Assembly: GCA_003232385.1 (NCBI GenBank)
Contig: QIJE01000039.1
Location: 1 to 34,365 of the forward strand
Source: a bacterium
GTDB lineage: Bacteria; SZUA-79; Acidulodesulfobacterales; Acidulodesulfobacteraceae
Reading direction: 5' to 3'
DNA: 34,365 nucleotides
Part shown: piece by piece, positions 5,494 to 27,371 of the stretch
Position numbering within the stretch: position 1 is the stretch's first letter
Layout: every line of letters begins with the position of its first letter
The notes under the pieces: model-generated
Told to the model about the DNA's origin: nothing
What the model saw: the letters and a program-made list of their open reading frames with translations, nothing else
Database searches by the model: none
Position numbers and translations under genes: made by a program

Positions 5494-5496
5494 TCC

Positions 5497-6006: not shown

Positions 6007-6034
6007 GGACGCAGACATAAAAAAAGGTGTTTTT

Positions 6035-12242: not shown

Positions 12243-12796
12243 ATATAATTGAAAATGGTTTGAAATTGATGAGTATCAAAAGCAGCACTAAAACCAACTT
12301 GATATTGGAGGATCTTAAAAAGATAAAGGATTATATAAAAAAAGAATCCAATGTCGTTGTATATCTTGATAATGAGGTATTAATCGGCAAGTATAATAGC
12401 GATTTTAGTTTTCAGGAAGACAAACGGATAGAAAAACAATTTGTCAGGAGACTGCGCATATTCAATCAAGATGAAGAACTGCATCTATGGCGTTCCAACG
12501 GCGGATTACATGGACGATACAGATCTGATAGTGAAGGCGAAGAAACTGATTTTATTGAAGCGAACCAGGTTATCTTTGGAACTAAAGCAGAGATTTACAA
12601 CGAATATACCATTTTAACCGAGCAAAGGGGAACAGAAATAGCAATTCCGGGAAAATGGAAAACGGATAACAAAAAAATGAGGGTGGCAATCAAAACGAGG
12701 CACTATATAGGTTATAAAAATGGTTACCGGGCTGCATATGTAGATGTAAGGTTTGTAAAATTTGTGCAATTGCCACTTATGGAGGGAGAACGATGA
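12239..12796 (+). CDS. csx19: Csx19-like protein (TIGR03984-like, subtype III-D)
   Basis: 185 aa. The middle of the protein reads like the Csx19 family: RRLRIFNQDEELHLWRSNGG, then HGRYRSD, a FGT turn and EQRGTEIAIP near residues 127-136. Csx19 is a small accessory subunit found next to csx10 in III-D loci; its exact role is not established. AAGGAGG ends 6 nt before the ATG, which overlaps the previous stop as ATGA, so expression is coupled to the broken cas7-cas7 gene and could suffer if ribosomes stop at 11895. The assignment is from memory of family features, so moderate confidence. Confidence 0.7.
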   Translation: MNIIENGLKLMSIKSSTKTNLILEDLKKIKDYIKKESNVVVYLDNEVLIGKYNSDFSFQEDKRIEKQFVRRLRIFNQDEELHLWRSNGGLHGRYRSDSEGEETDFIEANQVIFGTKAEIYNEYTILTEQRGTEIAIPGKWKTDNKKMRVAIKTRHYIGYKNGYRAAYVDVRFVKFVQLPLMEGER

Positions 12797-14946
12797 TGGA
12801 GAAAGCAACTTTACTAGCAAGAAAATCTAAAAAGGGTAAACTCATTGTAGAAATAGATTTTGAAGATAAGCCGCCGATGGCTATTCAAGAAATGTTTGTT
12901 GTTGATATAGATATGAATGACGAAAAATGCGAGTTTGAAAGAGTTAATGGATTAATTACAAGAGTTTTAATTAAAGGTAAAGAGTTGGAATTAAAGGCGA
13001 AGAAGAATAAAACTAATGTTTCCGGTAAAACTAATGTTTCCGGTAAAACTAATGTTTCCGGTAAGGCTAATGTTTTCGGTAAGGCTAATGTTTTCGGTAA
13101 GGCTAATGTTTCCGGTAAGGCTAATGTTTCCGGTAAGGCTAATGTTTCCACAGCAACTGCCCCATATAACTTTGTGCCATTGAATAAACAAGCAGTTACG
13201 CTGGATAAACCTGATTCGTTTGATAAATACTACGGAAACACAGGATATATAGATGTGGAAATTAAGACAAAAACGCCGATATATATCAGAAGATCCGGAA
13301 AAGAAGGCGAAGCGGGCAACTCAGATTTCTACCGGCAGGCGGGCAAATATCGTATCCCGGGAAGTTCCCTGCGGGGAATGATTCGAACGATGATTGAAAT
13401 AGCAAGTTGGAGCAGGTTTGGTTATTCAATAGCCGGGGATAACGAAGATAAAGGGATAAGATACTTTTATCGTACATTTGAGTCGAAGTATGTAAAAAAT
13501 GATTATAGTCAATGTATCATTGGAGGGGATAAGACAAGCGGTTTTTACAGTAAAGTAAAGGCAGGTTATTTTTACAAGAAGGGGCTTAACAGCTACGAAA
13601 TAAGGCCGGCAAGTATTATCGGTACAAATCAAATTTTTAGAGTAGAAGATGATTTGGTTGCAGGACAAGGGCTAAACGAAAGGATTTCTGTTGAAGATCC
13701 TAAAAGTAATAGATTCAAATTAAATAGGGATCATTATAAAGAAAAGTCTGAGCATGTTTATTTCGAGTATGACGAAGAGGCAGTCCATAAGCATACGGTA
13801 CTTATGAAATATGCTAAGGTTACGTCAATCAGACGATATGACGGAAATCCAAAGACGGATGAAGAATTTGAAGGATACTTAATCTGTTCCGGATATATGC
13901 CGAGCAATAAAAAGGGAAAACATCTGCATTGGGTTATTTTTCATGAAGATATAAATGCTAAAATACTGGAAATTAGCAAGGACTTAATGGATAGTTATAA
14001 AGATGATTATGATAGAATAAAATCTGCAAAAGGCAATAAGGAATCAATAATAAAAAGGAATGCAACCCCGTGTTTTTATTTGACGGATAAGCGAGGGGAT
14101 ATTGAGAGTTTTGGTTTTACAGGTCATTTTAGAATCCCTTACAAAAAGAGAATAACGGATTTTTTGCCTAAATATACACAAGACGGTGTTGATATTGCTG
14201 AATCTATTTTCGGAGTCAAAAATAACTTTATGACGCGTGTGTTTTTTGAAGATGCCCTTTTAGCCGAAAATTCCGCTGATAAAGTGACTACAAGTTGTAA
14301 AATACCTAAAATACTTTCAGGGCCAAAACCGACATCATTTCAATTATATTTGGAACAAAGTGCAAATGGCATGAAAAACTACAACGATCAAACTCAGATT
14401 AGGGGCAATAAACTCTATTGGCATCAAGATGGAAACAATTGGGAGGAAGATAAAAGTATAATAAAAAAGTCTGACACACAGCATACCGAAATTAAGCCGA
14501 TTAATGCGGGTGCTGAATTTCAAGGCAGAATAAGATTTGAAAATCTGAGTGATGTTGAAATTGGAGCACTTTTATTTGTGCTTGACCTGCCGGAAGGTTT
14601 GGCGCATAAAATCGGAATGGCAAAGCCGTTAGGCTTGGGATCCATTAGAATAAATGTAAAGCTGTATCTTTCCGACAGGGGTAATAGATATAAAAATCTT
14701 TTTGCCGAATGGAACGGTTTGAGGGAGAAAAGCGGAAAGGTGAATCAATTTAAGCAGGAGTTCGAAAAATATATTATTAATAAGATCGGAGAGCATAAAA
14801 GCAGTTTATGGGAAACAGATCGTCTTAAAGAGTTGAAAAGGATGCTTTATTTTGTGCCTAAACCTTATGCCGATGATATTAAGTACATGGATTTGAAACA
14901 ATTTAAAAAAAGAGATATTTTGCCATCTCCGACGGGTGTCAAATAA
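12793..14946 (+). CDS. Large RAMP protein, TIGR03986-like, with tandem-repeat linker
   Basis: 717 aa. Three parts are visible: an N-terminal strand-rich region of about 70 residues, a low-complexity linker of nearly eight K-[TA]-N-V-[SF]-G hexapeptides (73-119), and a large Cas7-like region. The latter contains KYRIPGSSLRGMIRTMIEIA (185-204), an extended insert, and the C-terminal glycine loop AHKIGMAKPLGLGSIRINV. This architecture fits the TIGR03986 RAMP family common in III-D loci. It probably contributes further Cas7 units to the effector. The start ATGATGG overlaps the csx19 stop by 4 nt, and ATG 12796 is equally possible. Confidence 0.75.
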   Translation: MMEKATLLARKSKKGKLIVEIDFEDKPPMAIQEMFVVDIDMNDEKCEFERVNGLITRVLIKGKELELKAKKNKTNVSGKTNVSGKTNVSGKANVFGKANVFGKANVSGKANVSGKANVSTATAPYNFVPLNKQAVTLDKPDSFDKYYGNTGYIDVEIKTKTPIYIRRSGKEGEAGNSDFYRQAGKYRIPGSSLRGMIRTMIEIASWSRFGYSIAGDNEDKGIRYFYRTFESKYVKNDYSQCIIGGDKTSGFYSKVKAGYFYKKGLNSYEIRPASIIGTNQIFRVEDDLVAGQGLNERISVEDPKSNRFKLNRDHYKEKSEHVYFEYDEEAVHKHTVLMKYAKVTSIRRYDGNPKTDEEFEGYLICSGYMPSNKKGKHLHWVIFHEDINAKILEISKDLMDSYKDDYDRIKSAKGNKESIIKRNATPCFYLTDKRGDIESFGFTGHFRIPYKKRITDFLPKYTQDGVDIAESIFGVKNNFMTRVFFEDALLAENSADKVTTSCKIPKILSGPKPTSFQLYLEQSANGMKNYNDQTQIRGNKLYWHQDGNNWEEDKSIIKKSDTQHTEIKPINAGAEFQGRIRFENLSDVEIGALLFVLDLPEGLAHKIGMAKPLGLGSIRINVKLYLSDRGNRYKNLFAEWNGLREKSGKVNQFKQEFEKYIINKIGEHKSSLWETDRLKELKRMLYFVPKPYADDIKYMDLKQFKKRDILPSPTGVK
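13009..13149 (+). repeat. 18-bp in-frame minisatellite, about 7.8 copies
   Basis: Units of 18 bp (first unit AAAACTAATGTTTCCGGT) run head to tail and encode K-T-N-V-S-G or K-A-N-V-F/S-G. Variants cluster: units 1-3 are AAAACT, 4-8 are AAGGCT, and units 4-5 carry TTC in place of TCC. This patterning indicates expansion by duplication of neighbouring units. Unit length is a multiple of three, so copy-number change preserves the frame. Confidence 0.97.
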
Positions 14947-16185
14947 ATGTCTAAAATTCTTATTACATCCATCGGTACGGGCATAAAAAAAGATGGCGGG
15001 TACAGGTCTGCCGAATATGAGATTGAAGGCAAGCGCTACAAGGAAAAGATCATTGCCAAAGCTCTTTATAATCATGTCAGGTTTGACAAAATCTTTATGC
15101 TTGGGACATCCAAATCTATGTGGGATGCGGTTTATGAGGCATTCGGCGGCAAAGATGAGAATATGTGGTGCAAATTATCGGGAAATCAAGAAACGGGTAA
15201 GATAGAGGAAAGAGATCTGTTGCCAATTACTGCATTATGGATGGATGATTTTAACATGGCCGGCTCAAAAACATTTATCGTTAATTACGGATTGGATGAC
15301 AGTCAGTTATGGGGTAATTTCGAGACCTATCTCAAAATAGCGGAATATATCGAAGATGGTGATGAGATATATCTGGACATAACCCATTCATTCCGCTCTC
15401 TTTCGCTAATGTCCTATATCATGCTTGATTTTGTCAAGTCTATGAGACAGAAAGAATTTACAGTGGAAGCAATATTTTATGGAATGTTTGAATATATCTA
15501 TGAGCCCTCTAATGTTGGAAAGATTACGCCTGTGGTAAATCTGAAGATTTTATTTGAAATAAACGAGTGGATAAAGGCAATTTCAGCGTTCAAGAATTAT
15601 GGCAGAGCCGAGTTGATAGTCGAAAATTTAGATAAGAGATTCGGAAAAGGTGATGAAAAGACAAAATATTTCAGCAGGTTTTCCGAAAATATTTCTATCG
15701 CAAATCTTTCCGCAATCAAAGCTTATGTGGATAGAGTGAAAGATAAATTGTCCCTCTTTGACGAAACGGGCTTTCCAATCATGAAGCTGGTTTCAAAAGA
15801 TTTAATCGACTTTATAAAAAGAATGGACAAAAAATATTTATCTGATTTTCAGCTTGAAGTGGCTGCATGGTTTTGCGAAAATAAAAATTACGCTGTAAGT
15901 TATATAGCTTTGACAGAATCGGTTGTTTCCAAAATATGCGAGATGGAGGGTATCGGCATGGAATCGGAGAAGGATAGAAAGGAAGCAAAAAAGAGGCTTC
16001 ATAGTGAGATGAAATATGCATCTCTTTCTAAAAAATATAAGACACTGAATCAAGTGAGAAACAGCGTCGCTCATCAGCTGTCCGATAGGCGTGGCAGTAT
16101 AATAAGTGATATTAAGAATTTAAAGAAAAGCATAGACAATATCGAGAAAGAGTTTAAAAAACTTGATAAATCAGGTCATAGTTAA
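14947..16185 (+). CDS. csx1: Csx1-like CARF-HEPN ribonuclease (TM1812/TIGR02221-like)
   Basis: 412 aa. The N-terminal CARF domain begins KILITSIGTGIKKDGGY and has DKIFMLGTSKSMWDA (47-61), a signature of TM1812-type Csx1. DITHSFRSLSLMSYI follows near residue 140. The C-terminal HEPN domain has the catalytic R-x4-H motif RNSVAH at 371-376. Cyclic oligoadenylate made by Cas10 would bind CARF and switch on non-specific RNA cleavage. The ATG follows the previous stop directly, and it is the last gene of the island. The active-site residues are intact, unlike the CARF protein at the head of the module. Confidence 0.9.
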   Translation: MSKILITSIGTGIKKDGGYRSAEYEIEGKRYKEKIIAKALYNHVRFDKIFMLGTSKSMWDAVYEAFGGKDENMWCKLSGNQETGKIEERDLLPITALWMDDFNMAGSKTFIVNYGLDDSQLWGNFETYLKIAEYIEDGDEIYLDITHSFRSLSLMSYIMLDFVKSMRQKEFTVEAIFYGMFEYIYEPSNVGKITPVVNLKILFEINEWIKAISAFKNYGRAELIVENLDKRFGKGDEKTKYFSRFSENISIANLSAIKAYVDRVKDKLSLFDETGFPIMKLVSKDLIDFIKRMDKKYLSDFQLEVAAWFCENKNYAVSYIALTESVVSKICEMEGIGMESEKDRKEAKKRLHSEMKYASLSKKYKTLNQVRNSVAHQLSDRRGSIISDIKNLKKSIDNIEKEFKKLDKSGHS

Positions 16186-16210
16186 AAATCAATCCATATC
16201 TTGCCTATCG

Positions 16211-16303
16211 GTTTTGATTTTATCCGTAGTAAATTGAAACCTCGTTACGACATTTCAAGTCTCATAACTCAAATACCCAACCTTACCTATAAGAAATTAT
16301 AAC
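16211..16303 (+). CRISPR. Possible relict CRISPR mini-array (two degenerate repeats, one 33-nt spacer-like gap)
   Basis: Bases 16211-16240 are a 30-mer beginning GTTTTGATTT and ending AAATTGAAAC, the form of 30-nt repeats common with type I-B/III systems. After a 33-nt gap, 16274-16303 ends TTACCTATAAGAAATTATAAC, close to the repeat 3' halves I remember ending ACCTATAAGGAATTGAAAC. The two copies agree at only about 16 of 30 positions, mostly in the 3' half. This would be a decayed array, not an active one, and the position just after the cas genes supports it. Chance in AT-rich DNA is a real alternative. Confidence 0.3.
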
Positions 16304-16382
16304 CGTAATAGAAATACCCGATAGATCATTAATCAAATATATATTTTCTAAAAACATAGCATAATTTCTATTGAAAATTTAC

Positions 16383-16411
16383 TTGACAATTTATAATCAT
16401 AGAAGTATTAT
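16383..16411 (+). promoter_or_regulatory. Sigma70-type promoter upstream of nosZ
   Basis: TTGACA (16383-16388), a 17-bp spacer, and TATTAT (16406-16411). It is a near-consensus match, giving an untranslated leader of roughly 230 nt before nosZ. Confidence 0.6.
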
Positions 16412-16457
16412 TTAAACAAGAACAATGTTAAAAGTTAACGAGTTGATTTTAACGGTA

Positions 16458-16473
16458 AACGATTATAATCGTT
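16458..16473. promoter_or_regulatory. Perfect 16-bp palindrome, candidate operator
   Basis: AACGATTATAATCGTT is fully self-complementary. It lies about 40 bp downstream of the predicted transcription start and 177 bp before nosZ. It does not match the FNR/NNR TTGAT-N4-ATCAA pattern. Similar half-site fragments (TTAACG) occur at 16435-16440 and 16449-16454. Confidence 0.45.
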
Positions 16474-16649
16474 GAATAATAAAGAAAATAGTTAGTTGAG
16501 ATTGTTAAAACTTTGTAATTTTTTTAATTATATATAGCTTTCGTAGCATTATAGATTTCTTATAATTAATATAATTTTTTGCATGTGTTTTTGTAATTTA
16601 AATTAATTTTTTTATTTTATCGTTAACACCCTATTAAGGAGGGGTTTTT

Positions 16650-18680
16650 ATGAAAAAGAGTAAAAAAGATCTGTCTCAAGAAGAAGATTCGCAGGTTCAG
16701 GTAGAGGGAACCACAAGACGCGGTTTTTTATCTACAATGGGTAAAATAGCAGCGGCAGCGGGACTTTTAGGAAGCGGGGTGGGAATGGAAGCATTATCCG
16801 GTTGCGCAAAAGAGCCGACAACATCATCGAAGTCGCGTATATCCGCCGCCGCTGCAAAAATGATGGTTCCTCCCGGCAAATGGGATAAGTATTATGGACT
16901 ATGGAGTGGCGGACCGACGGGAGAACTCAGGATATTGGGGCTTCCGTCAATGAGGGAACTGCTAAGAATACCTGTTTTTAATACCAATACCGGAATAGGT
17001 TACGGACCGACGGGTGATTCGCATTCGGCGAAAATGCTCGAAGAGGCCGGAGGCTATGGTCTTGGTGATGTGCATCATCCCCATTTTTCTTTCACAAAGG
17101 GAGATTTTGACGGGAGATATGCTTATGCTCACGATAAAGCTAACGGAAGAATTGCGAGGATAAGGTTGGATTATTTTATGACTGATGCAATCACCTCCAT
17201 TCCTAATGTTCCTGCCATTCACGGTCTGTACCCGCAGCGCTATCCCAAAACCGGTTATGTTTTTGGCGCTTCCGAGTTTGAAACTCCTATGCCTAACGAT
17301 GGCAGAGACATTGTACCTACGGGAAACAATGCGGCTCAGACTAAAAATTATTGGACACTTATTACCGCGGTCGACGGAGAAACAATGAGGGTTAAATGGC
17401 AGGTAATAGTAGACGGTAATCAGGATAACATGGATACCGATTATAAGGGGCTATACTGTATGGCTACATGTTACAATTCCAGCAAGGGGTGGAATGTTCC
17501 TACGATGACTAAACCTCCTGTTATGTGGGCGGTTTTCGTCAATATTCGCAGAGTGGAAGCCGCAGTAAAAGCCGGAAAATATAAAACAATAGGGGATTCT
17601 ACCGTACCGGTTTTAGACGGGAGGCACGGTTCCGACCTAACTACTTACATACCGGTAGAAAAGGATCCGCATGGTATAAGCTGTACCCCGGACGGCAAGT
17701 ATGCCGTTGCCAACGGAAAACTTGCACCTAAAGTAACTGTCATAGATCTCGAAAAAGTAGGTGATGTTTTTGAAGGTAGAGCGAAACCTAAAGACGCCGT
17801 TGCAGCTATTTTAACGGTAGGCGTCGGCCCTTTGCATACCGTGTATGACGGCAGGGGCAACGGTTATACTACACTTTTTGTAGATTCTCAGATGGTTAAA
17901 TGGAATATTGAGGAGGCCGTTAAGGCATATAAAGGCGACAAAAAGATCAAGCCTATAAAGCAAAAACTTGACGTTCAATATCAGCCTGGTCACGCCGCCG
18001 CAACGCAAGAAAATACGATACATCCCACGGGAGAATGGCTCGTCAGTCTTAACAAGTTTTCAAAAGACAGGTTCCTTCCTGTCGGACCGAGATTTCCCGA
18101 AAACGATCAGTTAATAGACATATCCGGTGAAAAGATGATTCTTGCGTACGATAACCCGGTATACATAGAGCCGCATCAGGCAGATATAGCGCTTGTCGAC
18201 AGATTAAAATATATTAAACAAATTTTTAATCCGAAATATTTTGCAAATCATGTCGAGTCCGGAACAGAAAACGTGAAACGAGTCGGTCCGCACAAGGTTA
18301 TCGTCAGGCTGACGGGGGTAGCGCCTATTCTGACCCCTGTTTATTTTCATTGTAAAGAGGGAGATCTTATAACCATTATTTATTCAAATAATGATACGGT
18401 AGAAAATCTTTCTCACGGTTTTTTGATGACGCTTCATAACGTAAATCTAAATATAAATCCAGGAGAAACGAAAGAGGTAACCTTTCTTGCCGATAGAGCG
18501 GGTGTTCACTGGTATTACTGCACGATATTCTGTCATGCCCTTCATCTTGAAATGCGCGGCAGAATGATAGTTGAAAGGGTTCCGGGTTATAAATCCAGGC
18601 CGATTCATTCGAATCGTCTTAAGGGAGAACCGTCATGGAATGAGTTGTTTAAGGATTTTCCGGTAGTAGGAAAGGCGTAA
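16650..18680 (+). CDS. nosZ: Nitrous-oxide reductase NosZ
   Basis: 676 aa. It reduces N2O to N2 in the periplasm using the CuZ and CuA copper centres. The CuA domain at the C-terminus shows NLSHGFLM and CTIFCHALHLEMRGRM, with C624, C628, H632 and M635. The CuZ-type His residues appear in DVHHPHFSF, DPHGISCTPDG, GPLHTVYDG, YQPGHAA and EPHQADI. The leader has a twin-arginine motif (TTRRGFLS, R23-R24), an Ala/Gly-rich core, and then LSGC at 49-52, which resembles a lipobox, so the enzyme may be a Tat-exported lipoprotein. AAGGAGG lies 7 nt before the ATG. Length is normal. It is the first gene of the nos operon. Confidence 0.97.
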   Translation: MKKSKKDLSQEEDSQVQVEGTTRRGFLSTMGKIAAAAGLLGSGVGMEALSGCAKEPTTSSKSRISAAAAKMMVPPGKWDKYYGLWSGGPTGELRILGLPSMRELLRIPVFNTNTGIGYGPTGDSHSAKMLEEAGGYGLGDVHHPHFSFTKGDFDGRYAYAHDKANGRIARIRLDYFMTDAITSIPNVPAIHGLYPQRYPKTGYVFGASEFETPMPNDGRDIVPTGNNAAQTKNYWTLITAVDGETMRVKWQVIVDGNQDNMDTDYKGLYCMATCYNSSKGWNVPTMTKPPVMWAVFVNIRRVEAAVKAGKYKTIGDSTVPVLDGRHGSDLTTYIPVEKDPHGISCTPDGKYAVANGKLAPKVTVIDLEKVGDVFEGRAKPKDAVAAILTVGVGPLHTVYDGRGNGYTTLFVDSQMVKWNIEEAVKAYKGDKKIKPIKQKLDVQYQPGHAAATQENTIHPTGEWLVSLNKFSKDRFLPVGPRFPENDQLIDISGEKMILAYDNPVYIEPHQADIALVDRLKYIKQIFNPKYFANHVESGTENVKRVGPHKVIVRLTGVAPILTPVYFHCKEGDLITIIYSNNDTVENLSHGFLMTLHNVNLNINPGETKEVTFLADRAGVHWYYCTIFCHALHLEMRGRMIVERVPGYKSRPIHSNRLKGEPSWNELFKDFPVVGKA

Positions 18681-18742
18681 TAGTGTAATATAATCGTTCT
18701 ATTCAGGGGGCTGGATAGAATACGAATACCGTAGACTTCTTT

Positions 18743-18780
18743 CACCCTCCCCCCTTTTGATTTTTTCAGGGGGGAGGGTG
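18743..18780 (+). terminator. Strong GC hairpin between nosZ and nosL (no U-tract)
   Basis: CACCCTCCCCCC (18743-18754) is perfectly complementary to GGGGGGAGGGTG (18769-18780), with a 14-nt loop rich in T. No run of T follows on either strand. It could be an mRNA 3'-end stabiliser for nosZ, a partial attenuator, or a processing site; a classical intrinsic terminator is less likely. Confidence 0.5.
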
Positions 18781-18826
18781 TCTGTTGTCGGGGGTATAAA
18801 AAAGTAAGGTAGATATGGAGGGCATA

Positions 18827-19399
18827 ATGGGAATGTTTAATAAAAAAGTATTTCTTTCCGTCTTAATTCTTATATCTTTATCTCTATCCGTTTCGTTAGC
18901 CGGATGTTCGTCGAATAAAGCCAAGTTGCCGTTGCCAAGAAAGGTGTTTTCCTCTACTACTTCGCAGTTATGCGGAATGTTTCTGAAACAGTATCCGGGT
19001 CCGGAGGCTCAAATAGTTTATAAGAACGGCCGGACATATTTTTTCTGTGATACGGTGGAATTATTTCAGTGGTTGCACTTAAAGGGTATAGCAGATAGGG
19101 GTACTCCGCTCGTTATGTATGTTCAGGATATGACAAATAATTCATGGAAACACCCCGAGGGTCATTTTGTAGATGCCAAAAAGGCTTATTATGTTGTAGG
19201 TTCCAAAAGAACAGGCTGCATGGGTGTAACATTCGCTTCATTTTTAAGCAAAAAAGCAGCCGATAAATTTATTACAAAATATGGCGGAAAAATATATAAG
19301 TTTGACGAAATCACCGTGAAAATGATAGATAAAGCGGCAAATTCCGCCAATATGAAAATAATGAAAATGAAAAAGGCGAAGCTTAAGAATTTGGGATAG
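18827..19399 (+). CDS. nosL: NosL copper-chaperone lipoprotein
   Basis: 190 aa from ATG 18827, chosen because GGAGGG sits 4 nt upstream; an ATG at 18815 overlaps that ribosome site. A hydrophobic signal ends in a lipobox, LAGC, then SQLCGMFLKQYPGPEAQIVY, which carries the conserved Cys-Gly-Met of NosL, and YFFCDTVELFQWL. NosL binds Cu(I) in the periplasm and hands it to the NosDFY assembly machinery for CuZ. The C-terminus is a Lys/Met-rich tail. It lies directly after nosZ instead of at the end of the cluster as in classical nosRZDFYLX. Confidence 0.85.
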   Translation: MGMFNKKVFLSVLILISLSLSVSLAGCSSNKAKLPLPRKVFSSTTSQLCGMFLKQYPGPEAQIVYKNGRTYFFCDTVELFQWLHLKGIADRGTPLVMYVQDMTNNSWKHPEGHFVDAKKAYYVVGSKRTGCMGVTFASFLSKKAADKFITKYGGKIYKFDEITVKMIDKAANSANMKIMKMKKAKLKNLG

Positions 19400-19518
19400 T
19401 CAGGCAGATGAAACGAGGTTAATACCATTTTCTAAACAATAAAATTGATGTAATATATGTATTTATATATATATATTGATGTATATATTATTAATAGGAG
19501 GGATGTACTATTTAAATT

Positions 19519-21603
19519 ATGAGAAAACATAAAATTATTTATATATTTTGTATTTTTGCGGTAGCTTTAATCATGTCTTTTATATTTAACTCCGCTTTCG
19601 CATTCGGGAATACAAAGATCACATTAGCGAACTCTTCCAATTACTACCATGACGCACTAAGGGGGGCTTCCGTATTTAAACGCGGAGAGATAAAGGGAAC
19701 CCCCGTCGTGTACGGTTATAACAAAAAAGGCAAATTTCTCGGTTACATATTTCTTTCCACTAATTTAGTCAATATAGAGAGTTATTCGGGTTTACCCTTA
19801 ACATCACTGATATCAATAAATAAAAAAGGAATAATACAAGGTGTAAGGGTTGTGCATTGTGACGACCCTATATTTCTGATAGGAATTCCTATCTCTAAGC
19901 TTTATTCATTCACCGACCAGTATATCGGGAAAGATATAAGGAGTAATATCTATATAGGCGGCAAAGGGAAAGACCATGTATCCGCCATAGCAAGCGCAAG
20001 CGTCACTACCGTGGCGATGGACCAGACCATTCTCATGGCAGCCAGAAAATTTGCCTCAAAATTGGGCATTATGAAGTCTATCGTTAAAGTAAAATATAAA
20101 TTAAAAAATATTTACAGCCCTGCGAATTGGAATGAGCTAAGAAGGGACGGCAGTATTAGAAAATTTACCATATCATGTTCACAGATGGGCGTAAAAAACT
20201 GCAGCGGAGAATATGAGACCGTATATTACGGTATTTTAAGTATTCCTAATGTAGGAAAGAATATTCTCGGCAGTTATAAGTATGGGTACTTGTCGAAAAG
20301 GTGGAAAGAAAAAAATCAGGCCGCTATTTTTATTATTGCGAACGGAGTATCGTCCTTTTTAGGCTCCGGTTTCGCAAGGGGAGGCGCATTCGAAAGATTT
20401 CATTTGGAACAGGGGTATAGTTCTATAATGTTTAGAGACGTAGATTTTAGTTATATTTCTTCTCTCGGAATAAAAGGGGTTCCGTATTTTAAGGAGGGAG
20501 GAATATTTACTATTCCGCTTTCTATATTTAATCCGATACTTCCTTTTAATGTAGTATTTACCTTTCATAAACATGTTTCTCATGCTTCTATGCTAAATAA
20601 GGAAACCTTTCACACCTTTTACTCGAATTATCATCTACCCAGCAAATATTACGTTTCAAGTTACCGGTATGTTAAAAAGATGAATCAGTACCAGATTGCA
20701 TGGATAAAATACCTTAAATATGTTATTCCGCTTGTATTATTTTTAATTATTCTAACTATTATTTTTGTAATAAAAGACAAAATCATAACGAAAAAATTGC
20801 CTCGAAACGGTAGAAAATGGATAAGGCCGCTCTATTATTCGGTACTATTCTTATTTTTGATACTGATCGGTTTTATTAAACCTTCTCAGCCGTCCGTTAC
20901 GCATCTTTATACAATTTATGATAGTTTATTCGTAAGCTATCATCCGGCACTTTTTTTGCTTGACCCGCTGATTTTTATTCTTTTTGCATTCATGTTCATA
21001 ACAGCGGTTATCTGGGGAAGGGGCGTGTTTTGCGGATGGATTTGTCCTTTCGGAACGATACAGGAATATATCTATAGGATAAAGGAAAAGATACTGCCAG
21101 AGAAACTTGCGAAAAAAATCTCGTTTGAATTTAATAACAAGTTTCATTTTAAGTTAATTTATTTAAAATATGCTATATTTATAATATTAATGGCTACAGC
21201 TACTATATCGATCGCTTGGGGCGAGAGGCTTGCCGAGGTTGAGCCGTTCAAAACTGTTTTTTACCTGCATTTTGAAAGGCAGTGGTATTTTACGGCTTAC
21301 GCTATTCTTCTAATCGGTCTATCCGTCCTATCCTACCGATTTTTTTGCAAGTATATGTGCCCGTTAGGAGCATCATTAGGCTTGTTGTCTAAAATAAAGA
21401 TATTTAACATAAAAAGATACGGGGAGTGCAAAAGCTGTAAAATTTGTGCCAGGTCTTGCAATATTAAGGCGATAGACGATAAAGGGACAATCAATAGGTC
21501 GGAATGCTTTTACTGCTTAGAATGTCAGATTAATTATAACGATGACAAACTTTGTCCCCATTTATTAAAACTCAAAAAAGCAAAAATAGGAAATATTAGA
21601 TAA
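19519..21603 (+). CDS. nosR: NosR-type membrane flavo-iron-sulfur protein
   Basis: 694 aa. An N-terminal signal helix and periplasmic FMN-binding domain come first. The flavinylation segment reads IASASVTT (157-164); the usual S-G-A-[ST]-x-T is here A-S-A-S-V-T with T163 as likely acceptor. Transmembrane helices follow from about residue 400, with two cytoplasmic cysteine motifs (FCGWICPFG and CKYMCPLG). The C-terminal ferredoxin-like clusters are CKSCKICARSCN and CFYCLECQ. NosR transfers quinol-derived electrons to NosZ. An ApbE flavin transferase is encoded at the end of the same operon. AGGAGGG is 15 nt upstream of the ATG, a long spacing. Upstream is a TA-rich 120-base gap. Confidence 0.9.
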   Translation: MRKHKIIYIFCIFAVALIMSFIFNSAFAFGNTKITLANSSNYYHDALRGASVFKRGEIKGTPVVYGYNKKGKFLGYIFLSTNLVNIESYSGLPLTSLISINKKGIIQGVRVVHCDDPIFLIGIPISKLYSFTDQYIGKDIRSNIYIGGKGKDHVSAIASASVTTVAMDQTILMAARKFASKLGIMKSIVKVKYKLKNIYSPANWNELRRDGSIRKFTISCSQMGVKNCSGEYETVYYGILSIPNVGKNILGSYKYGYLSKRWKEKNQAAIFIIANGVSSFLGSGFARGGAFERFHLEQGYSSIMFRDVDFSYISSLGIKGVPYFKEGGIFTIPLSIFNPILPFNVVFTFHKHVSHASMLNKETFHTFYSNYHLPSKYYVSSYRYVKKMNQYQIAWIKYLKYVIPLVLFLIILTIIFVIKDKIITKKLPRNGRKWIRPLYYSVLFLFLILIGFIKPSQPSVTHLYTIYDSLFVSYHPALFLLDPLIFILFAFMFITAVIWGRGVFCGWICPFGTIQEYIYRIKEKILPEKLAKKISFEFNNKFHFKLIYLKYAIFIILMATATISIAWGERLAEVEPFKTVFYLHFERQWYFTAYAILLIGLSVLSYRFFCKYMCPLGASLGLLSKIKIFNIKRYGECKSCKICARSCNIKAIDDKGTINRSECFYCLECQINYNDDKLCPHLLKLKKAKIGNIR

Positions 21604-21611
21604 CAGGTCTC

Positions 21612-22976
21612 ATGATGTTTAAAAAACATAAAATTTTAGCAATCGGATTATTATTTTCGCCGGTTATTCTGTGCATTTTTTTGATGATGCCTGTGGCTTC
21701 TCATGCTAAAACGATTTATGTCGGGAAAAATAAGGCGTTTCATTCTATACAGAATGCCGTAAGGTCTGCAAATGACGGAGATACTGTTATAGTCGAAAAG
21801 GGACGGTATTCAGGAAACATATTCATAAACAAGCCGCTGACCTTAATCGGAGTGAACGGTCCGATAATAGATGCGCTCCTAAAGGGAAGCGGTATTGTTG
21901 TTAACGCGAAACATGTAATAGTTGAAGGGTTCAAGATAATAAACGACGGAGATGATCTTGGAAAAATGGACGCAGGGATACTTTTAAGGCAGAAGGCCGA
22001 TTTTGCGATTATCAAAGATAATTACATATTAAGTTCCAACGCTAACGGGATATATGTGGATGGCGCATTTTACGCTACCGTCAAGGATAATTTTATGTCG
22101 TCCTCCAGAAAAATCCCTTGGGGAGCGCGAGGGTACGGGTTTTACCTGTGGAATGCCCAGTACGACGTATTAGAGGGGAATGTCATTAAGTATTTCGTAG
22201 GTGGATTTTATGTTATATCGTCCCCAAATTCCTATCTTTTAAAAAATATCATATTGGACGATTATTACGGTACCCACTATATGTATTCAGACTACGACAT
22301 CGTTGCCGGAAATTTAGTGAAAAATACCATAGTCGGTTTGGCGCTTATGTATTCTAACTATGTAACGGCGGATTTTAACACGATAATTAATGCGAAACAT
22401 AAGGGTTTTCTGTTTAATCAGGCATTTTACGATACGGTAATGAGCAATGTGGTCATAAGATGCGGTAAAGGAATGGATTTATACGATACCGTTCATAATA
22501 AAATAATTCATAATCTCATTATTAATAACAATATAGGGATGCATGTCTGGGGCGGGTCGTTTCATAATAAAGTGTATAATAATTCTTTTATAAACAATAG
22601 ATTTCAAGTTAAATTTCTTGCCCATGATAATATTTACTGGGATTATAAAGGCAAAGGCAACTTCTGGTCCGATTATAACGGTTTTAGTACTAAAAAAAAC
22701 AATGTGGGGTCGCTGCCGTACAGAGCCAACTCTATCGTAAGTCTTATTTACTGGAAGTTTCCTTTAGCCAAGTTATTGCTGAGCGGTTCGCCCATTATTC
22801 GTACGTTAGAGTTTATAGCGGACAGTTTTCCTATTTTTACGGTAGCGGGTATTGTCGATAGATATCCTTATTTAAATCCGACTTTTCCAAAAAAAATAAT
22901 AAAAAATTCAGTAAAGGATGGCTTTTCTTATGTTAAAATTAAAAGAAGAATCGAATTCAGACAAGATGAAAGATAA
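21612..22976 (+). CDS. nosD: NosD periplasmic beta-helix copper-centre assembly protein
   Basis: 454 aa. A cleavable signal peptide ends near SHAK (residues 30-33). Then come repeating right-handed beta-helix turns (for example FAIIKDNYILSSNANGIYV and HNLIINNNIGMHVWGG) and the CASH/NosD-type start IYVGKNKAFHSIQNAV. NosD works with the NosFY ABC transporter and NosL in building CuZ. It begins 8 nt after nosR. The end overlaps the proposed nosF start by up to 59 nt. Confidence 0.93.
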   Translation: MMFKKHKILAIGLLFSPVILCIFLMMPVASHAKTIYVGKNKAFHSIQNAVRSANDGDTVIVEKGRYSGNIFINKPLTLIGVNGPIIDALLKGSGIVVNAKHVIVEGFKIINDGDDLGKMDAGILLRQKADFAIIKDNYILSSNANGIYVDGAFYATVKDNFMSSSRKIPWGARGYGFYLWNAQYDVLEGNVIKYFVGGFYVISSPNSYLLKNIILDDYYGTHYMYSDYDIVAGNLVKNTIVGLALMYSNYVTADFNTIINAKHKGFLFNQAFYDTVMSNVVIRCGKGMDLYDTVHNKIIHNLIINNNIGMHVWGGSFHNKVYNNSFINNRFQVKFLAHDNIYWDYKGKGNFWSDYNGFSTKKNNVGSLPYRANSIVSLIYWKFPLAKLLLSGSPIIRTLEFIADSFPIFTVAGIVDRYPYLNPTFPKKIIKNSVKDGFSYVKIKRRIEFRQDER

Positions 22977-23940
22977 TAAGCTGCCTATAATGGAACTAAA
23001 TAATATTAATAAAGAATATAAACTTGGAGGCGGATATGTATTTAAAGCACTGGCGGATATTAACTTTTCGGTGAAAGAAGGGGAGGTGTTGACTATTCTC
23101 GGTCATAACGGCGCCGGTAAATCTACGCTTATAAAAATTATTATGGGTTTTACAAAGCCTACAACCGGCTCTATAAAAATATTCGGCACCGATACGTCTA
23201 AAATGCTCCCTAAACACGTAAAAGCCAAAATAGGCTATATTCCGGAGGTTGTCCATTTTTACGGAAATCTATCGGGGATAGAAACCATGGAATTTTTTGG
23301 AAAACTCAATAATCTTTATAATAAAAAACTTTTTGAAGAGCTGTTGGATAAGGTCGGCATATCCGGTGCCGCAAATAAAAAAGTGGTTTCTTATTCAAAA
23401 GGAATGAAACAGAGATTGGCATTTGCCGTGTCGCGTATTAAAGATCCTGATATCTACATATTCGACGAACCGACGAGCGGAATGGATCCATCTGCTGTCA
23501 ACGACTTTATTTCTCTCGTCAGGCTTATAAACGACAATGGGAAAACCATATTAATGACAGCGCATATTCTTCCCGAGATAGAAGATATTTCAAATAGGAT
23601 TTGCGTGATATTGAACGGAAAAATCACGGCTCTGGGCGGGATACCCGAATTATTAGAAGGATTAGGCCTGCCTACGACAATCAACCTAAGGTTTAAAAAC
23701 GGTTTCAAGTTTGAAGAAAGTTGGTTTGAAAATATAAAGAATTTTAAACTAATTACGGATTATAAATTTAACGACAAAATTTTGTCCGCAAACATTAAAT
23801 TTATCGAAACAAAGAGGATAAAATTAATCAACGAGATTATCAGTAAATATCACGATGACCTTGCGGATATGAGTATAAAGAAGCCGGGTCTTTTTGAAAT
23901 TTTCAGTCATTTCTCTAATAAGAAGGTGTACAATGATTAA
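22918..23940 (+). CDS. nosF: NosF ABC-transporter ATPase
   Basis: 340 aa at most. Walker A is GHNGAGKST (in VLTILGHNGAGKSTLIKII), the signature is SYSKGMKQRLAFA, and Walker B is DIYIFDEPTSGMDP with a following H-loop (TAHILPEIE). It powers NosY and, with NosD, assembly of the NosZ copper site. The start is uncertain: ATG 22918, 22930 and 22966 are in frame, and 22966 would reduce the nosD overlap to 11 nt; homology begins near PIMELNNINKEY. The stop overlaps nosY. Confidence 0.92.
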   Translation: MAFLMLKLKEESNSDKMKDNKLPIMELNNINKEYKLGGGYVFKALADINFSVKEGEVLTILGHNGAGKSTLIKIIMGFTKPTTGSIKIFGTDTSKMLPKHVKAKIGYIPEVVHFYGNLSGIETMEFFGKLNNLYNKKLFEELLDKVGISGAANKKVVSYSKGMKQRLAFAVSRIKDPDIYIFDEPTSGMDPSAVNDFISLVRLINDNGKTILMTAHILPEIEDISNRICVILNGKITALGGIPELLEGLGLPTTINLRFKNGFKFEESWFENIKNFKLITDYKFNDKILSANIKFIETKRIKLINEIISKYHDDLADMSIKKPGLFEIFSHFSNKKVYND

Positions 23941-24772
23941 TTTAAGGGTAGTTTTAACAATCTCGAAAAAGGAATTTATAGGCAGAATTAAGAATATTTC
24001 ACTTTTTATCTTAATTTTTATTCTTGCCGTATTGTCTTTTGCAATCTCCTATTTCGGAACAAGTCCGTCCGGCTTGACCGGTTTTCACGGGGTAAACGTT
24101 ACTATAGCCTCTCTTATGAGTTTGTCTATTTATTTAATTCCGTTGATAGCCTTTATCTTGAGTTATGATTCTATTACCGGAGAGGAGGAGGACGGGACGA
24201 TGCCTTTGCTTTTATCGTCGTCCGCCTCCAGAAGCGAGATATACCTCGGCAAGCTTATAGGGCTTATAATTGTTATATCTATCGCAATTTTTGTAGGATA
24301 CGGCATATCGGGCATCACTATTTTATCAAGAGGAAATGTTGGAAGCATAATCTCCTACTTTACCTTTATATTTGCCTCTATTTTACTCGGCGTATCTTTT
24401 CTGTCCATTGGTTTGTTAGTCTCCAGTTTTACGAGGTCGAGAACATCTTCCATAACTATTTCCGTATTTTTGTGGTTTTTTTATGTTTTTATCTACGACC
24501 TGTTGTTGATAGGGATTCTTGTCGCGACAAAGGGGCAAGCCATGTTTATCAACAACACGGTGATAGGCGCTTCTATGCTGCTTAATCCTACCGATGTGTA
24601 TAGGCTTTTTACTATTTCTTTCATACATGGCCTTAAGGGATATTACGGTTTGACGAGTATTTTAACGGGAAGATTCGTACTGGATCACTTTCTTTTAATT
24701 GTTACATATATTATGTGGATTTTTCTGCCCATGTTCATGGGTGCGTTCATATTTCATAAAAAAAGATACTAA
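23933..24772 (+). CDS. nosY: NosY ABC-transporter permease
   Basis: 279 aa from ATG 23933, which overlaps the nosF stop by 8 nt and has AAGAAGGTG upstream; the frame opens earlier, but that would intrude 47 nt into nosF. There are about six hydrophobic segments, with the ABC-2 type EEEDGTMPLLLSSSASRSEIYLGK loop between helices 2 and 3. It is the membrane partner of NosF in copper-centre biogenesis. Shine-Dalgarno and coupling place it in the same operon. Confidence 0.9.
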   Translation: MINLRVVLTISKKEFIGRIKNISLFILIFILAVLSFAISYFGTSPSGLTGFHGVNVTIASLMSLSIYLIPLIAFILSYDSITGEEEDGTMPLLLSSSASRSEIYLGKLIGLIIVISIAIFVGYGISGITILSRGNVGSIISYFTFIFASILLGVSFLSIGLLVSSFTRSRTSSITISVFLWFFYVFIYDLLLIGILVATKGQAMFINNTVIGASMLLNPTDVYRLFTISFIHGLKGYYGLTSILTGRFVLDHFLLIVTYIMWIFLPMFMGAFIFHKKRY

Positions 24773-24794
24773 TTGCTTAAGGAGGATTGATAGT

Positions 24795-25061
24795 ATGAGT
24801 GATATTTTTAGCGGCATTGATGATGTTTCTGCAAAAAAAGAGCTTGCAGATATGATTCGCGAGATAACGTTAATGAAGGTTGCGATAGATAATATTAAAA
24901 ACAGTTATGACGTCAGCGACGAGAATGCGTTACTAAGAAAGATAAAGAAGGGTTTGGTTCCGGAACACCCTGCCTACGAGGGTTATCTTTCAATACTTCA
25001 TATTAGGGATTACATTGCGCATTATAGGCTTAAAATACAGAATTTCATGAATGAATTATAA
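24795..25061 (+). CDS. Small helical protein of unknown function in the nos operon
   Basis: 88 aa from ATG 24795, with AAGGAGG 9 nt upstream; an earlier in-frame ATG lies within nosY and lacks a ribosome site. The sequence (MSDIFSGIDDVSAKKELADM...) is acidic, amphipathic and probably all-helical, with no Cys, no membrane segment and no motif I recognise. It stands between nosY and a DUF6516-like gene, with 22 nt and 15 nt gaps, so it is co-transcribed with the nos genes. Possible roles are a cytosolic partner of the next protein or a regulator; neither is shown. Confidence 0.75.
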   Translation: MSDIFSGIDDVSAKKELADMIREITLMKVAIDNIKNSYDVSDENALLRKIKKGLVPEHPAYEGYLSILHIRDYIAHYRLKIQNFMNEL

Positions 25062-25076
25062 AAAAGGGGACTTACG

Positions 25077-25457
25077 ATGGATAAATACGATTTTCTGGAA
25101 AACAAAAAGATTAACGAAGAGTTTGCAATAAAAATAGCCGACGACGTAAATGTTACATTTAAGAATATATTAAAAGCCCCGGCAGAGGTAAAAAGCGATG
25201 GTTTACTGCTGAAATTTAAAGACGACTCCCGGCTTGAATTGCGTTATCCTTCGAAAAAAAAATATTCTTTTAATTTTTTTAGGAACGAAAAATTATTTAT
25301 AATAGATACCGCTCCCGTTCATAGCGAGCTTGAAACATATCCTAATCATATTCATGATTTCGAGGGAAAATTAATGAAAGACAATATAACGGATGTTAAT
25401 AATGACCCTATTAAAAATATCGAAAACTTTTTACGTTTTTTTAAATATACTTTATAA
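25077..25457 (+). CDS. Small protein resembling DUF6516/TumE
   Basis: 126 aa, preceded by AAAGGGG. The second half reads YSFNFFRNEKLFIIDTAPVH followed by a PNHIHD motif and an IKNIENFLRFF helix. This resembles the beta-sheet plus P-x-H-x-H layout of DUF6516 proteins, some of which are annotated as TumE toxins. Whether this one is a toxin is unknown. The 88-aa neighbour is not an obvious DNA-binding antitoxin. Placed inside a nos operon, a metabolic or regulatory role is as likely. The stop is followed 1 nt later by the ApbE start. Confidence 0.55.
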   Translation: MDKYDFLENKKINEEFAIKIADDVNVTFKNILKAPAEVKSDGLLLKFKDDSRLELRYPSKKKYSFNFFRNEKLFIIDTAPVHSELETYPNHIHDFEGKLMKDNITDVNNDPIKNIENFLRFFKYTL

Positions 25458-25458
25458 G

Positions 25459-26508
25459 ATGAATAAACATATCAAACTGATTACTCTTATCGTATTTTTA
25501 TGTACTTTTTCCCTTATTTTGAGTTCCTGCGCCAAAAAAAAAGGGGGGGCTATTTCTAAAAAGATAGAAATCAAAAAAACTTTTTATTCCATGGGAACTT
25601 TCTGGGAGATAAAGGTTATCTCCACAAATAAAAATAGGTTAAAGGATTTAAAAACGGTCGACCTCGCAATAAAAAGGGTAGAAAAATTAGACGATGTATT
25701 AAGTGATTTCAAGGTATCCAGTAATGTATCGCTAATCAATAGGTACTCAGGGATAAAGCCTGTTAAGGCGGACGCCGGCCTTTTAGCACTTTTAAAAATG
25801 AGCCTTAAATTTTACAAATTAACGTACAATGTTTTTGACGTGGCGATCGGTCCCACGATGAAGATATGGGGATTTTACGATAAACATTATACTATACCGA
25901 GCAAAAAGGCGATTAATCATGCAGTCTACCTTGATAACCCTCTATTTATAAAAATAAGAGGGGAAACGGTTTTTCTCGAAAAAAAAGGTATGATGCTTGA
26001 CTTTGGAGGAGATGGTGAGGGTTACGGCATTGATGAAGCACTTGATACTTTGAAAAGCCACGGGATTAAAAATGCACTTGTCAACGGCGGGGGGCAGATA
26101 ACCGCCATAGGTAAGGATGTAAATGGAAGAGGATGGAAAGTAGGGTTACTGGACCCGTTGGACAGGAATAAAATAATCAAGGTCATTAGGTTGACTAATG
26201 CCTCCGTTGAGACCTCTGCAAACTACGAGAACCATTTTTTTTACAAGGGTAAATATTACGGACATATAATGAACCCTGCAACGGGAATGCCCGCCGAAAC
26301 AGATACACTGAGCGATACCATTATAGTTAAAAACAAGGATTTCAAGTTCCCTTCGACTGTCGCCGATGCGCTTTCCTGCTCTTTTTTTATCTTGAACAAA
26401 AAGCAAATATCGAATGTTATAAATAGATTCAAGAAACCGATCGAAGTTATACTCATAAAAAAACTCAATGGGCATTTAAAGATATATAATTTAGTGTCTA
26501 ACAGTTAA
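25459..26508 (+). CDS. apbE: ApbE/NosX-like FAD:protein FMN transferase (lipoprotein)
   Basis: 349 aa from ATG 25459, one base after the previous stop; the frame extends upstream but would overlap the preceding gene by 65 nt. The signal ends with lipobox LSSC. ApbE landmarks are MGTFWEI, VFDVAIGPTMKIWGF, LDFGGDGEGYGID, ALVNGGGQITAIG, SVETSANYENHFF, GHIMNPATG and STVADALSCSFFIL. It attaches FMN to a Thr or Ser, here presumably of NosR. The usual GG-I-A-K-G-Y is GGDGEGYG, and HI-I-D-P is HIMNP, so the active site is divergent. NosX is the nos-cluster version of this enzyme. Confidence 0.87.
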   Translation: MNKHIKLITLIVFLCTFSLILSSCAKKKGGAISKKIEIKKTFYSMGTFWEIKVISTNKNRLKDLKTVDLAIKRVEKLDDVLSDFKVSSNVSLINRYSGIKPVKADAGLLALLKMSLKFYKLTYNVFDVAIGPTMKIWGFYDKHYTIPSKKAINHAVYLDNPLFIKIRGETVFLEKKGMMLDFGGDGEGYGIDEALDTLKSHGIKNALVNGGGQITAIGKDVNGRGWKVGLLDPLDRNKIIKVIRLTNASVETSANYENHFFYKGKYYGHIMNPATGMPAETDTLSDTIIVKNKDFKFPSTVADALSCSFFILNKKQISNVINRFKKPIEVILIKKLNGHLKIYNLVSNS

Positions 26509-26559
26509 ATATTTAGAGTGAAACATAGTTTGTCTGTCGAGTCTTTCAGATCGTCAAAG

Positions 26560-26604
26560 CGAAGACGGCGGAAGATTAAGACGTTCTGCCGTCTTCGTAA
26601 TCTT
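26560..26604 (+). repeat. Inverted repeats forming two mutually exclusive hairpins
   Basis: Helix A pairs CGAAGACGGC (26560-26569) with GCCGTCTTCG (26588-26597). Helix B pairs AAGATTAAGACG (26572-26583) with CGTCT (26590-26594) and TAATCTT (26598-26604), leaving a 3-nt bulge. Both use 26590-26594, so only one can form. There is no T-run, so a simple terminator is doubtful. It lies 52 nt after the nos operon. Confidence 0.5.
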
Positions 26605-26843
26605 ACCCTATTTCGTTAAAAGTGATGCGTTGTCGGCATAATTCCGGATTGTAATACTTGCTCTAAAACCGGCTTTATTCGCCCCCTTATGCGTTTGGCA
26701 CTTCTATATCGACAGTGAAAAACGAAAAGAATTATTAATCGAGATTTAAAACGGTTACATAATTTATCCCTTTAAAGCTCTGATAAGACGATGCTCCGGC
26801 GCGGTATTAAAAGGATATATTGACGGATGGAACGGTTTATTTC

Positions 26844-26872
26844 TTGACGAATTCATGATAATTGTGTATCAT
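26844..26872 (+). promoter_or_regulatory. Sigma70-type promoter for smpB
   Basis: TTGACG (26844-26849), 17-bp spacer, TATCAT (26867-26872). Transcription would start near 26879, giving a leader of about 18 nt with no Shine-Dalgarno before the smpB ATG. Two TATAAT hexamers at 26877 and 26886 have no matching -35. Confidence 0.5.
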
Positions 26873-26897
26873 TTCATATAATCTATATAATACGATA

Positions 26898-27371
26898 ATG
26901 TCTATTACAATACGTAAACAAGGTATAAAAATAGTAGCGGACAACAGAAAGGCATCGTTTCTTTATGAAATCATAGAGAAATACGAAGCCGGAATTTCGC
27001 TTTACGGTCCGGAAATAAAATCAATAAAATCCGGCAAGATGAACCTCTCTGACGGATATGTAATAATAAAAGACAGCGAAGCGTTTCTTCTTAATGTCCA
27101 TATAAGTCCTTATGAAAAGGCAACGAGGGAAAATAAAGATCCGTTAAGAACCAGGGTTTTATTGTTGCATAAAAGTGAAATTTTAAGGCTTTACGGGAAG
27201 ACAAAAGAAAAGAATCTCACCATAGTCCCGTTAAAAGTATATTTAAAAAGAGGTATGGCCAAGGTTGAAATTGCGCTTGTAAAAGGGAAAAAGATTTACG
27301 ATAAGAGGGCGTCTATAAAAGAAAGAGAGTGCAAGAGAGAGATGGAAAGGGTAATTAAAAGCAGGAGATGA
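26898..27371 (+). CDS. smpB: SmpB, tmRNA-binding protein
   Basis: 157 aa from ATG 26898; the frame opens at 26862, but homology begins at IRKQGIKIVADNRKASFLYE, and the upstream residues overlap the predicted -10 box. Landmarks are YEAGISLYGPEIKSIKSGKMNLSDGY, FLLNVHISPYEKATRE, and the basic C-terminal tail KIYDKRASIKERECKREMER that enters the ribosome. SmpB with tmRNA rescues stalled ribosomes. Length is normal. No Shine-Dalgarno is visible. Confidence 0.95.
   Translation: MSITIRKQGIKIVADNRKASFLYEIIEKYEAGISLYGPEIKSIKSGKMNLSDGYVIIKDSEAFLLNVHISPYEKATRENKDPLRTRVLLLHKSEILRLYGKTKEKNLTIVPLKVYLKRGMAKVEIALVKGKKIYDKRASIKERECKREMERVIKSRR

What the first reader, a model, noticed from the sequence alone, without database searches (positions are those of the whole stretch)
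24795..25457. 88-aa helical gene plus DUF6516/TumE-like gene embedded in a respiratory operon
DUF6516 proteins are sometimes toxins with small partners. Here the pair is tightly coupled between nosY and apbE. It may be a co-opted toxin-antitoxin pair or unrecognised NosZ maturation/regulation factors.
Basis: inference. Interest (0 to 1): 0.5.

Follow-up and report, generated by a model that had tools for sequence, protein, structure and literature searches.

The report
Toxin–antitoxin-like pair inside nos operon
Two small genes related to a recently discovered bacterial toxin and its antidote sit as fixed members of the gene set for breathing nitrous oxide in a group of bacteria, which suggests that a toxin–antidote pair has been put to work in, or made to guard, this climate-relevant pathway.

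Summary
An 88-aa gene (24795-25061) and a 126-aa gene (25077-25457) lie between nosY and apbE. The second passes the Pfam TumE (ex-DUF6516) cut-off. The first hits no family, but a model built only from the partners of TumE genes in three other lineages finds it at 28.3 bits (best of 2000 shuffles: 12.0). So both halves are homologous to a TumA–TumE pair, antitoxin first.

The pair is part of a nine-gene block, nosZLRDFY-tumAE-apbE. Of the 30 genomes held for the phylum, 4 have nosZ and the same 4 have the pair, each time between nosY and apbE, although flanks differ and the nosZ carriers are scattered on an RpoB tree. Both genes are under purifying selection. No match in 35 nos loci from other lineages. 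The nos TumE clade has one origin, a long stem and short tips. It keeps the HxH pair but lost the usual YxxH histidine and RxD arginine; the partner lacks an N-terminal part that may bind DNA in relatives.

I read it as a domesticated, probably regulatory pair. A working toxin that keeps the operon in place is not excluded. NosZ maturation has no support. New variant of a known kind.

The parts
16383..16411 (+). promoter-like site ahead of nosZ (TTGACA-17-TATTAT), the best-scoring of 45 sites listed in 16000-27000
   Evidence: consensus scan, 11 of 12 matches; 45 sites found against 37.2 +/- 6.9 in shuffles, so not evidence of function by itself
16650..18680 (+). nosZ, Tat-type nitrous-oxide reductase
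   Evidence: TIGR04244 762 bits, cut-off 625; Pfam nos_propeller
18830..19399 (+). nosL (start chosen by me; the listed ORF begins at 18815)
   Evidence: PF05573, 136 bits
19519..21603 (+). nosR-like
   Evidence: NF046105 477 bits, below its cut-off of 1000; PF12801
21612..22976 (+). nosD
   Evidence: TIGR04247 316 bits, cut-off 300
22963..23940 (+). nosF-like ABC ATPase
   Evidence: PF00005 and position
23933..24772 (+). nosY-like ABC-2 permease
   Evidence: PF12679 134 bits and position
24780..24785 (+). Shine-Dalgarno-like AGGAGG of the 88-aa gene
   Evidence: sequence
24795..25061 (+). 88-aa protein, TumA-type antitoxin partner without the N-terminal part of its relatives (tumA)
   Evidence: profile of three independent TumE partners finds it at 28.3 bits, E 1.6e-7; best of 2000 shuffles 12.0; four copies of 88 aa align without gaps
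25077..25457 (+). 126-aa TumE (DUF6516) homologue (tumE)
   Evidence: PF20126 31.7 bits, cut-off 23.4; alignment and tree
25459..26508 (+). apbE, FMN transferase, last gene of the block
   Evidence: PF02424 221 bits; conserved in the block

Best explanation
The two genes are a divergent TumA–TumE pair that has become a fixed part of a nine-gene nos operon (nosZ-L-R-D-F-Y-tumA-tumE-apbE). Shown here: homology of both halves to TumE and its antitoxin partners; fixed place; retention and sequence constraint. Inferred: the 88-aa protein binds and holds the TumE protein; TumE acts on RNA, as proposed but not proven for the family; the pair is made only when the nos operon is transcribed, because no evident promoter of its own was seen and its partner lacks the N-terminal segment that may bind DNA in related antitoxins. 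The most likely use is regulatory (for example cutting or silencing mRNA, or slowing translation, when nos expression and respiration get out of step), by a TumE with a changed active site and perhaps reduced toxicity.
For: TumE HMM over its cut-off. Partner homology (six-row profile; P0001 against the G202 partner E 2e-8; P0002 against the G202 TumE E 7e-17). Antitoxin-first order, as in 15 TumE loci by eye (10 others there have the toxin first). In 30 genomes of the phylum: nosZ in 4, tumE in the same 4 (also by profile), strong tumA hits in the same 4; among the 19 genomes at least 90% complete and at most 5% contaminated also 4. Same place in all four, though the flanks of the window share nothing with those of G008/G011 at E 1e-8. 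The three nosZ carriers with an RpoB in the tree are scattered: at least 3 changes forced by well-supported branches. dN/dS 0.05-0.14 for tumA (4 of 6 pairs defined) and 0.06-0.16 for tumE (6 of 6), in the range of the nos genes. One origin of the nos TumE clade (100/100), stem 2.39 and tips 0.01-0.09 changes per column: a burst of change, then constraint. YxxH histidine replaced by N and RxD arginine by I (a gap in one alignment), HxH kept. P0001 is shorter at the N-terminus than related partners; in one of these (L029) residues 7-35 resemble RHH_1, below cut-off (15.7 against 20.5 bits).
Against: No toxicity, binding, RNA or expression data for this pair. The closest free-standing relative (G202) also has a partner without the extra N-terminal part, so that loss preceded or is independent of joining nos. 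Both signature residues are also missing in 3 of the 23 other TumE rows that cover both positions, so their loss does not show loss of activity. The long stem may shrink with better sampling (24 sequences). The DNA-binding reading of the missing part rests on a sub-threshold match in one partner. The lack of an own promoter rests on a consensus scan that does no better than shuffles, and weak terminator-like sites lie at 24726-24743 and 24967-24983, also at chance level.
Confidence: 0.5

Rival explanations
1. A fully working type II toxin-antitoxin module captured by the nos operon, which by killing or arresting cells that lose it keeps a mobile or dispensable nos operon in place.
For: nosZ with the pair is patchy on the RpoB tree. 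G029 carries a block close to that of G008 (tumE 97.6%, tumA 96.6, nosR 95.1, nosZ 94.7, nosY 92.5, nosF 91.0, apbE 85.0) although RpoB is 77.0% identical, as after a transfer. The HxH pair and the D are kept. The TumE paper reports that toxins from six gammaproteobacteria stopped E. coli growth and were neutralised by their partners, with translation inhibition measured for one (PMC10584680, passages).
Against: No own promoter seen (a weak test); the partner lacks an N-terminal segment of its relatives; expression would be tied to nos, which suits addiction poorly; altered signature residues and long stem. 26 of 30 genomes of the phylum lack nosZ and tumE alike. The G029 transfer may be a binning error: its nos contigs are 5.2 and 4.9 kb and their tetranucleotides are nearer to G008/G011 than to G029.
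Confidence: 0.3
2. The two proteins are dedicated accessory factors of nitrous-oxide reductase (for example a cytoplasmic chaperone of NosZ before export, or a partner of NosF or ApbE), with the TA ancestry only history.
For: Fixed place among nos maturation genes and constraint like theirs; stem burst then constraint.
Against: No membrane-like segment, while copper loading is periplasmic (established knowledge). No match in 35 nos loci of other lineages.
Confidence: 0.13
3. A chance passenger: a TA pair that landed in the operon and is drifting.
For: Other TumE genes are scattered in the same phylum.
Against: dN/dS far below 1, identity to the window copy near that of NosZ, NosR and NosY and above NosF and ApbE, same place in four species.
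Confidence: 0.05

Closest known systems
TumE-TumA toxin-antitoxin superfamily (PF20126, ex-DUF6516; Nature 2023, PMC10584680, passages read)
   Same: TumE HMM over the cut-off; two adjacent genes, partner first; partner homologous to partners of other TumE genes; strand-rich core with flanking helices in the model
   Different: Lies inside a nos operon; YxxH histidine and RxD arginine of most sampled members replaced; partner short at the N-terminus; toxicity untested
   Same: Nearest relative found of both genes (35% over 100 aa; 31% over 51 aa); partner also short; shares the TAPxH...YPxHxH...ITDVN pattern
   Different: Not in a nos operon: its neighbours look like mnmG and queG (names by eye); keeps the YxxH histidine and the R
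NtrPR (VapBC4) of Sinorhizobium meliloti (passages of PMC10945364)
   Different: Another protein family (VapBC); its gene neighbourhood was not checked

Membership tests
TumE (PF20126) | Passes the curated Pfam cut-off | tested here: met
   31.7 bits, cut-off 23.4; the other three nos copies 27.6 to 31.0 bits, also over the cut-off
TumE (PF20126) | Conserved HxH pair and aspartate | tested here: met
   present in 3 of 3 nos rows examined, the fourth copy dropped as a near-duplicate; in other rows the HxH positions are H in 23 of 23 and 22 of 22, the D in 20 of 23 that cover the site
TumE (PF20126) | YxxH histidine and RxD arginine seen in most members of my sample | tested here: not met
   N and I/gap in nos rows; among other rows H in 18 of 23 and R in 21 of 24 that cover the site; a common trait of my sample, not a published defining feature
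TumE (PF20126) | alpha+beta fold, two helices on an antiparallel sheet of seven strands (as in PMC10584680) | tested here: inconclusive
   model has helix 14-27, six strands of 3 or more residues, helix 111-121; pLDDT 74 from 3 sequences; not compared with a TumE model
TumA-TumE toxin-antitoxin system | Two-gene arrangement, partner upstream | tested here: met
TumA-TumE toxin-antitoxin system | Partner homologous to partners of other TumE genes | tested here: met
   28.3 bits, E 1.6e-7, best of 2000 shuffles 12.0
TumA-TumE toxin-antitoxin system | DNA-binding part in the antitoxin (usual in type II, not required in the TumA paper) | tested here: inconclusive
   N-terminal segment of related partners absent; only a sub-threshold RHH_1 match in L029
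TumA-TumE toxin-antitoxin system | Toxin inhibits translation, partner neutralises it | not testable with these tools
   needs expression tests
nos maturation factor | Found with nos genes across lineages | tested here: not met
   0 of 35 nos loci outside the phylum; some are cut short by contig ends (L142 is 3.3 kb, L133 ends in nosZ)
nos maturation factor | Export signal or membrane anchor (for a periplasmic role) | tested here: not met
   best 19-residue hydropathy 0.56 and 0.54; a simple test, not a signal-peptide predictor

The most novel reading that the evidence does not exclude
A toxin-antitoxin pair has been domesticated as a built-in control device of a respiratory operon: TumE has traded general toxicity for a dedicated RNA-targeting role in nitrous-oxide respiration, held in check by a neutraliser that no longer binds DNA, and the whole nine-gene set is inherited or passed on as one unit.
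Probability: 0.35. Interest if true: 0.68.

Novelty: new variant of a known kind. Interest (0 to 1): 0.5.

Why it matters
TumE-TumA is a young toxin family whose mechanism is not settled (its paper calls RNase activity yet unproven). A member kept inside the operon for the main known biological N2O sink would show that such pairs can become part of core metabolism, and it gives a natural variant with a changed active site for testing which residues make TumE toxic. It also points to a possible unrecognised layer of control of N2O reduction in bacteria that I guess, without a test, to be acid-mine dwellers.

Tried and rejected
Rejected: (1) 'TumE relation is chance': HMM over the cut-off and family alignment. 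(2) 'The 88-aa gene is unrelated filler': profile test with shuffles. (3) 'Drifting passenger': dN/dS and conservation. (4) 'General nos factor': 0 of 35 outside loci. None of the 35 gave an apbE match to the window's gene at E 1e-4 either; in the two of the three loci with the nearest NosZ (45-46%: L130, L131, L136) where I read the ORFs (L131, L136), nosY is followed by other genes.

Led nowhere: NCBIfam and PADLOC gave no family for either protein; PHROGs gave only a weak unknown family for P0001, E 0.02. Sub-threshold Pfam matches of P0001 (best E 0.034) were not used; one, DUF7342, also shows up below cut-off in the partners of L029 and L067, a lead not followed. PDB sequence search: two and one hits at E 0.016 to 0.028, taken as chance. 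Foldseek against PDB: 0 matches at E <= 0.001. VIA-align second look: best Z 8.5, rmsd 3.2, 93 residues (6khi_V), next 7.1 and 7.0, within what the tool calls common for such models, so not used; absence of a family there shows nothing. Plasmid tblastn with P0002: no match; with the L029 TumE one weak hit each in phages and plasmids. Two viral scans found no relative. The one genome-contig scan used N-terminal, family-specific patterns and returned two loci that are the G029 and G011 copies. The phylum of G202 gave 2 of 17 genomes, G202 itself and G055, both known. The phylum of the nearest outside NosZ held 5 genomes, no match, and the tool says that such an empty answer shows nothing.

Limits: (386 genomes) missed TumE genes that one search had found in G001, G004 and G011:C1, so its absences are soft; the 35 nos loci were therefore re-read in six frames with filters off, where TumE controls rang but no TumA control was included. 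P0001 also gave weak hits in 8 further genomes (E 0.004 to 0.083, frames of 96 to 571 aa, not examined); a weak P0002 hit in G029:C80 has three stops and was not counted. dS is saturated or undefined for several window pairs, and between G008 and G029 it varies from 0.13 (tumA) to 0.87 (nosZ), so the block is not uniformly recent there. I could not tell transfer from misbinning in G029. RpoB was not found in G011, so it is not in the tree. In one search one nos copy was dropped as a near-duplicate, and of the other TumE rows two are fragments. The read-through model of both proteins has mean pLDDT 65 and no interface score, so I draw no complex from it. Papers: DUF6516 is held in one paper only; SZUA-79 with nosZ in none; searches for TumE with toxin, nosZ/nos operon with toxin-antitoxin, and nosY/apbE with antitoxin listed none that I recognised as describing this pair (listings only).

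Full report
What is there. Gaps of 22, 15 and 1 bases join nosY, the 88-aa gene, the 126-aa gene and apbE; in G008 they are 21, 30 and 6 bases, in G011 21, 9 and an overlap of 4 (coordinates). The 126-aa protein passes the Pfam TumE cut-off (31.7 bits, cut-off 23.4). The 88-aa protein reaches no family's cut-off.

The 88-aa protein is an antitoxin-type partner. Of the TumE loci shown (L026-L030, L041, L045-L051, L054, L055) have a small gene just upstream and 10 (L031-L036, L052, L053, L057, L060) a gene downstream instead, both by eye. A profile of the upstream partners of three (G055, G048, G114; P0001 not included) scored P0001 at 28.3 bits, E 1.6e-7, against 12.0 for the best of 2000 shuffles; a profile of 11 other partners did not list P0001 among the hits shown. 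The best-matching stretch is IKKGLVPEHPAYEGY in the window and IENGNIPEHPAWEDL in G114. A profile of six such proteins, P0001 included, rang in 12 of 386 genomes: the 4 of this phylum and 8 others. Of the 10 places in those 8 genomes, 8 lie beside a TumE gene; in 2 (G202:C259, G070:C13) none was seen. P0001 lacks part of the N-terminus of these partners; in one of them (L029) that part resembles a ribbon-helix-helix domain below cut-off. The nearest free-standing relative, G202, has a short partner too, so shortness is not special to nos.

The pair belongs to the nos operon. The phylum is held as 30 genomes of one family. NosZ is in 4 of 30, the TumE protein in the same 4, strong P0001 hits in the same 4. 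The shared block is nosZ-L-R-D-F-Y-tumA-tumE-apbE in the window, G008 and G011, and no other gene of the window matched their 20-kb regions at E 1e-8; in G029 the block is split over two small contigs. On an RpoB tree of the 21 genomes with a full RpoB, the three nosZ carriers that are in it need at least 3 gains or losses; one of them is G029, whose nos contigs might be misbinned. Pair and operon thus go together across a patchy distribution. Among 386 genomes, 39 have NosZ and 31 TumE. Regions around the 35 NosZ genes outside the phylum, 3.3 to 20 kb each, were read in six frames without filters: no TumE or TumA match. The best non-control hit was E 0.0066, in the nosD frame of L140; the TumE controls rang with every TumE profile (weakest E 0.0011 with the nos-only profile); there was no TumA control.

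Constraint and change. Window against the other three: tumA 77-78%, tumE 75%, nosZ 80%, nosR 77-79%, nosY 81-83%, nosF 66-71%, apbE 68-73%. dN/dS where defined: tumA 0.05-0.14, tumE 0.06-0.16, nosZ 0.04-0.09, nosF 0.16-0.19. In a tree of 24 TumE proteins the nos clade is one group (100/100) with G202 beside it (83/82), a stem of 2.39 and tips of 0.01-0.09 changes per column. In the family alignment the HxH pair is kept in nos rows; the YxxH histidine is N and the RxD arginine is lost. Of the other rows that cover the sites, 18 of 23 have the H and 21 of 24 the R; 3 of 23 lack both (L051, L061, L057). So the change is unusual but not unique.

Regulation. The best promoter-like site listed for 16000-27000 lies before nosZ (16383-16411, 11 of 12); plus-strand sites near the pair score 9 of 12, and the number of sites is not beyond shuffles. 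Co-transcription with nos is therefore likely but inferred.

Structure. The TumE model (pLDDT 74) has a helix, a strand-rich core and a C-terminal helix. The read-through chain of both proteins gave three helices for the 88-aa part (11-37, 43-52, 59-87) at low confidence.

How it most likely works. Steps shown: both genes are homologous to a TumA-TumE pair, fixed in the nos operon, under selection. Steps inferred: binding of the two; RNA or translation as the target (the TumE paper, passages read, shows inhibition of protein synthesis for one tested toxin and proposes RNase activity as yet unproven); a regulatory use. I give 0.5 to a domesticated regulatory pair, 0.3 to a working TA module that keeps the operon, 0.13 to a Nos accessory role, 0.05 to a passenger.

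Known context. Tan et al. 2019 (PMC6776010, one passage) report expression of norB and nosZ in one member (AP3) of Ca. Acidulodesulfobacterales. That the window comes from that order is my guess from recall and from the record titles of two relatives, not a test. NtrPR of S. meliloti is a precedent for a TA pair that affects metabolism under low oxygen (passages).

Noticed in passing
window 95-7369: CRISPR genes: Cas_TM1802, Cas7, Cas5, Cas3-type helicase and a Card1-like CARF gene by Pfam.
   Followed up: partly
window 7380-16185: Type III CRISPR-like genes (Cas10 palm, RAMP proteins) upstream of the nos operon; the 412-aa gene at 14947-16185 has no Pfam match at E 0.001. The genes at 9423-12796 were not searched.
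   Followed up: partly
L031-L036, L052, L053, L057, L060: Another TumE class with a KGxHxH-type motif, followed by a gene of 115-137 aa, so toxin first; L031-L036 come from 6 genomes of this phylum.
   Followed up: no
L074, L075 (G029:C9, G029:C8): nos block 95-98% identical to G008 in nosZ, nosR, tumA and tumE (85% in apbE) although RpoB is 77% identical: recent transfer or misbinned contigs.
   Followed up: partly
window 24795-25457 and the same genes in L020, L021: tumA and tumE lie in the same reading frame in the window and in both named relatives, so that reading TAA as a residue gives one chain; probably chance.
   Followed up: no
L050:1396-1728: TumE gene of G289 with an internal TGA stop beside an intact-looking partner.
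   Followed up: no
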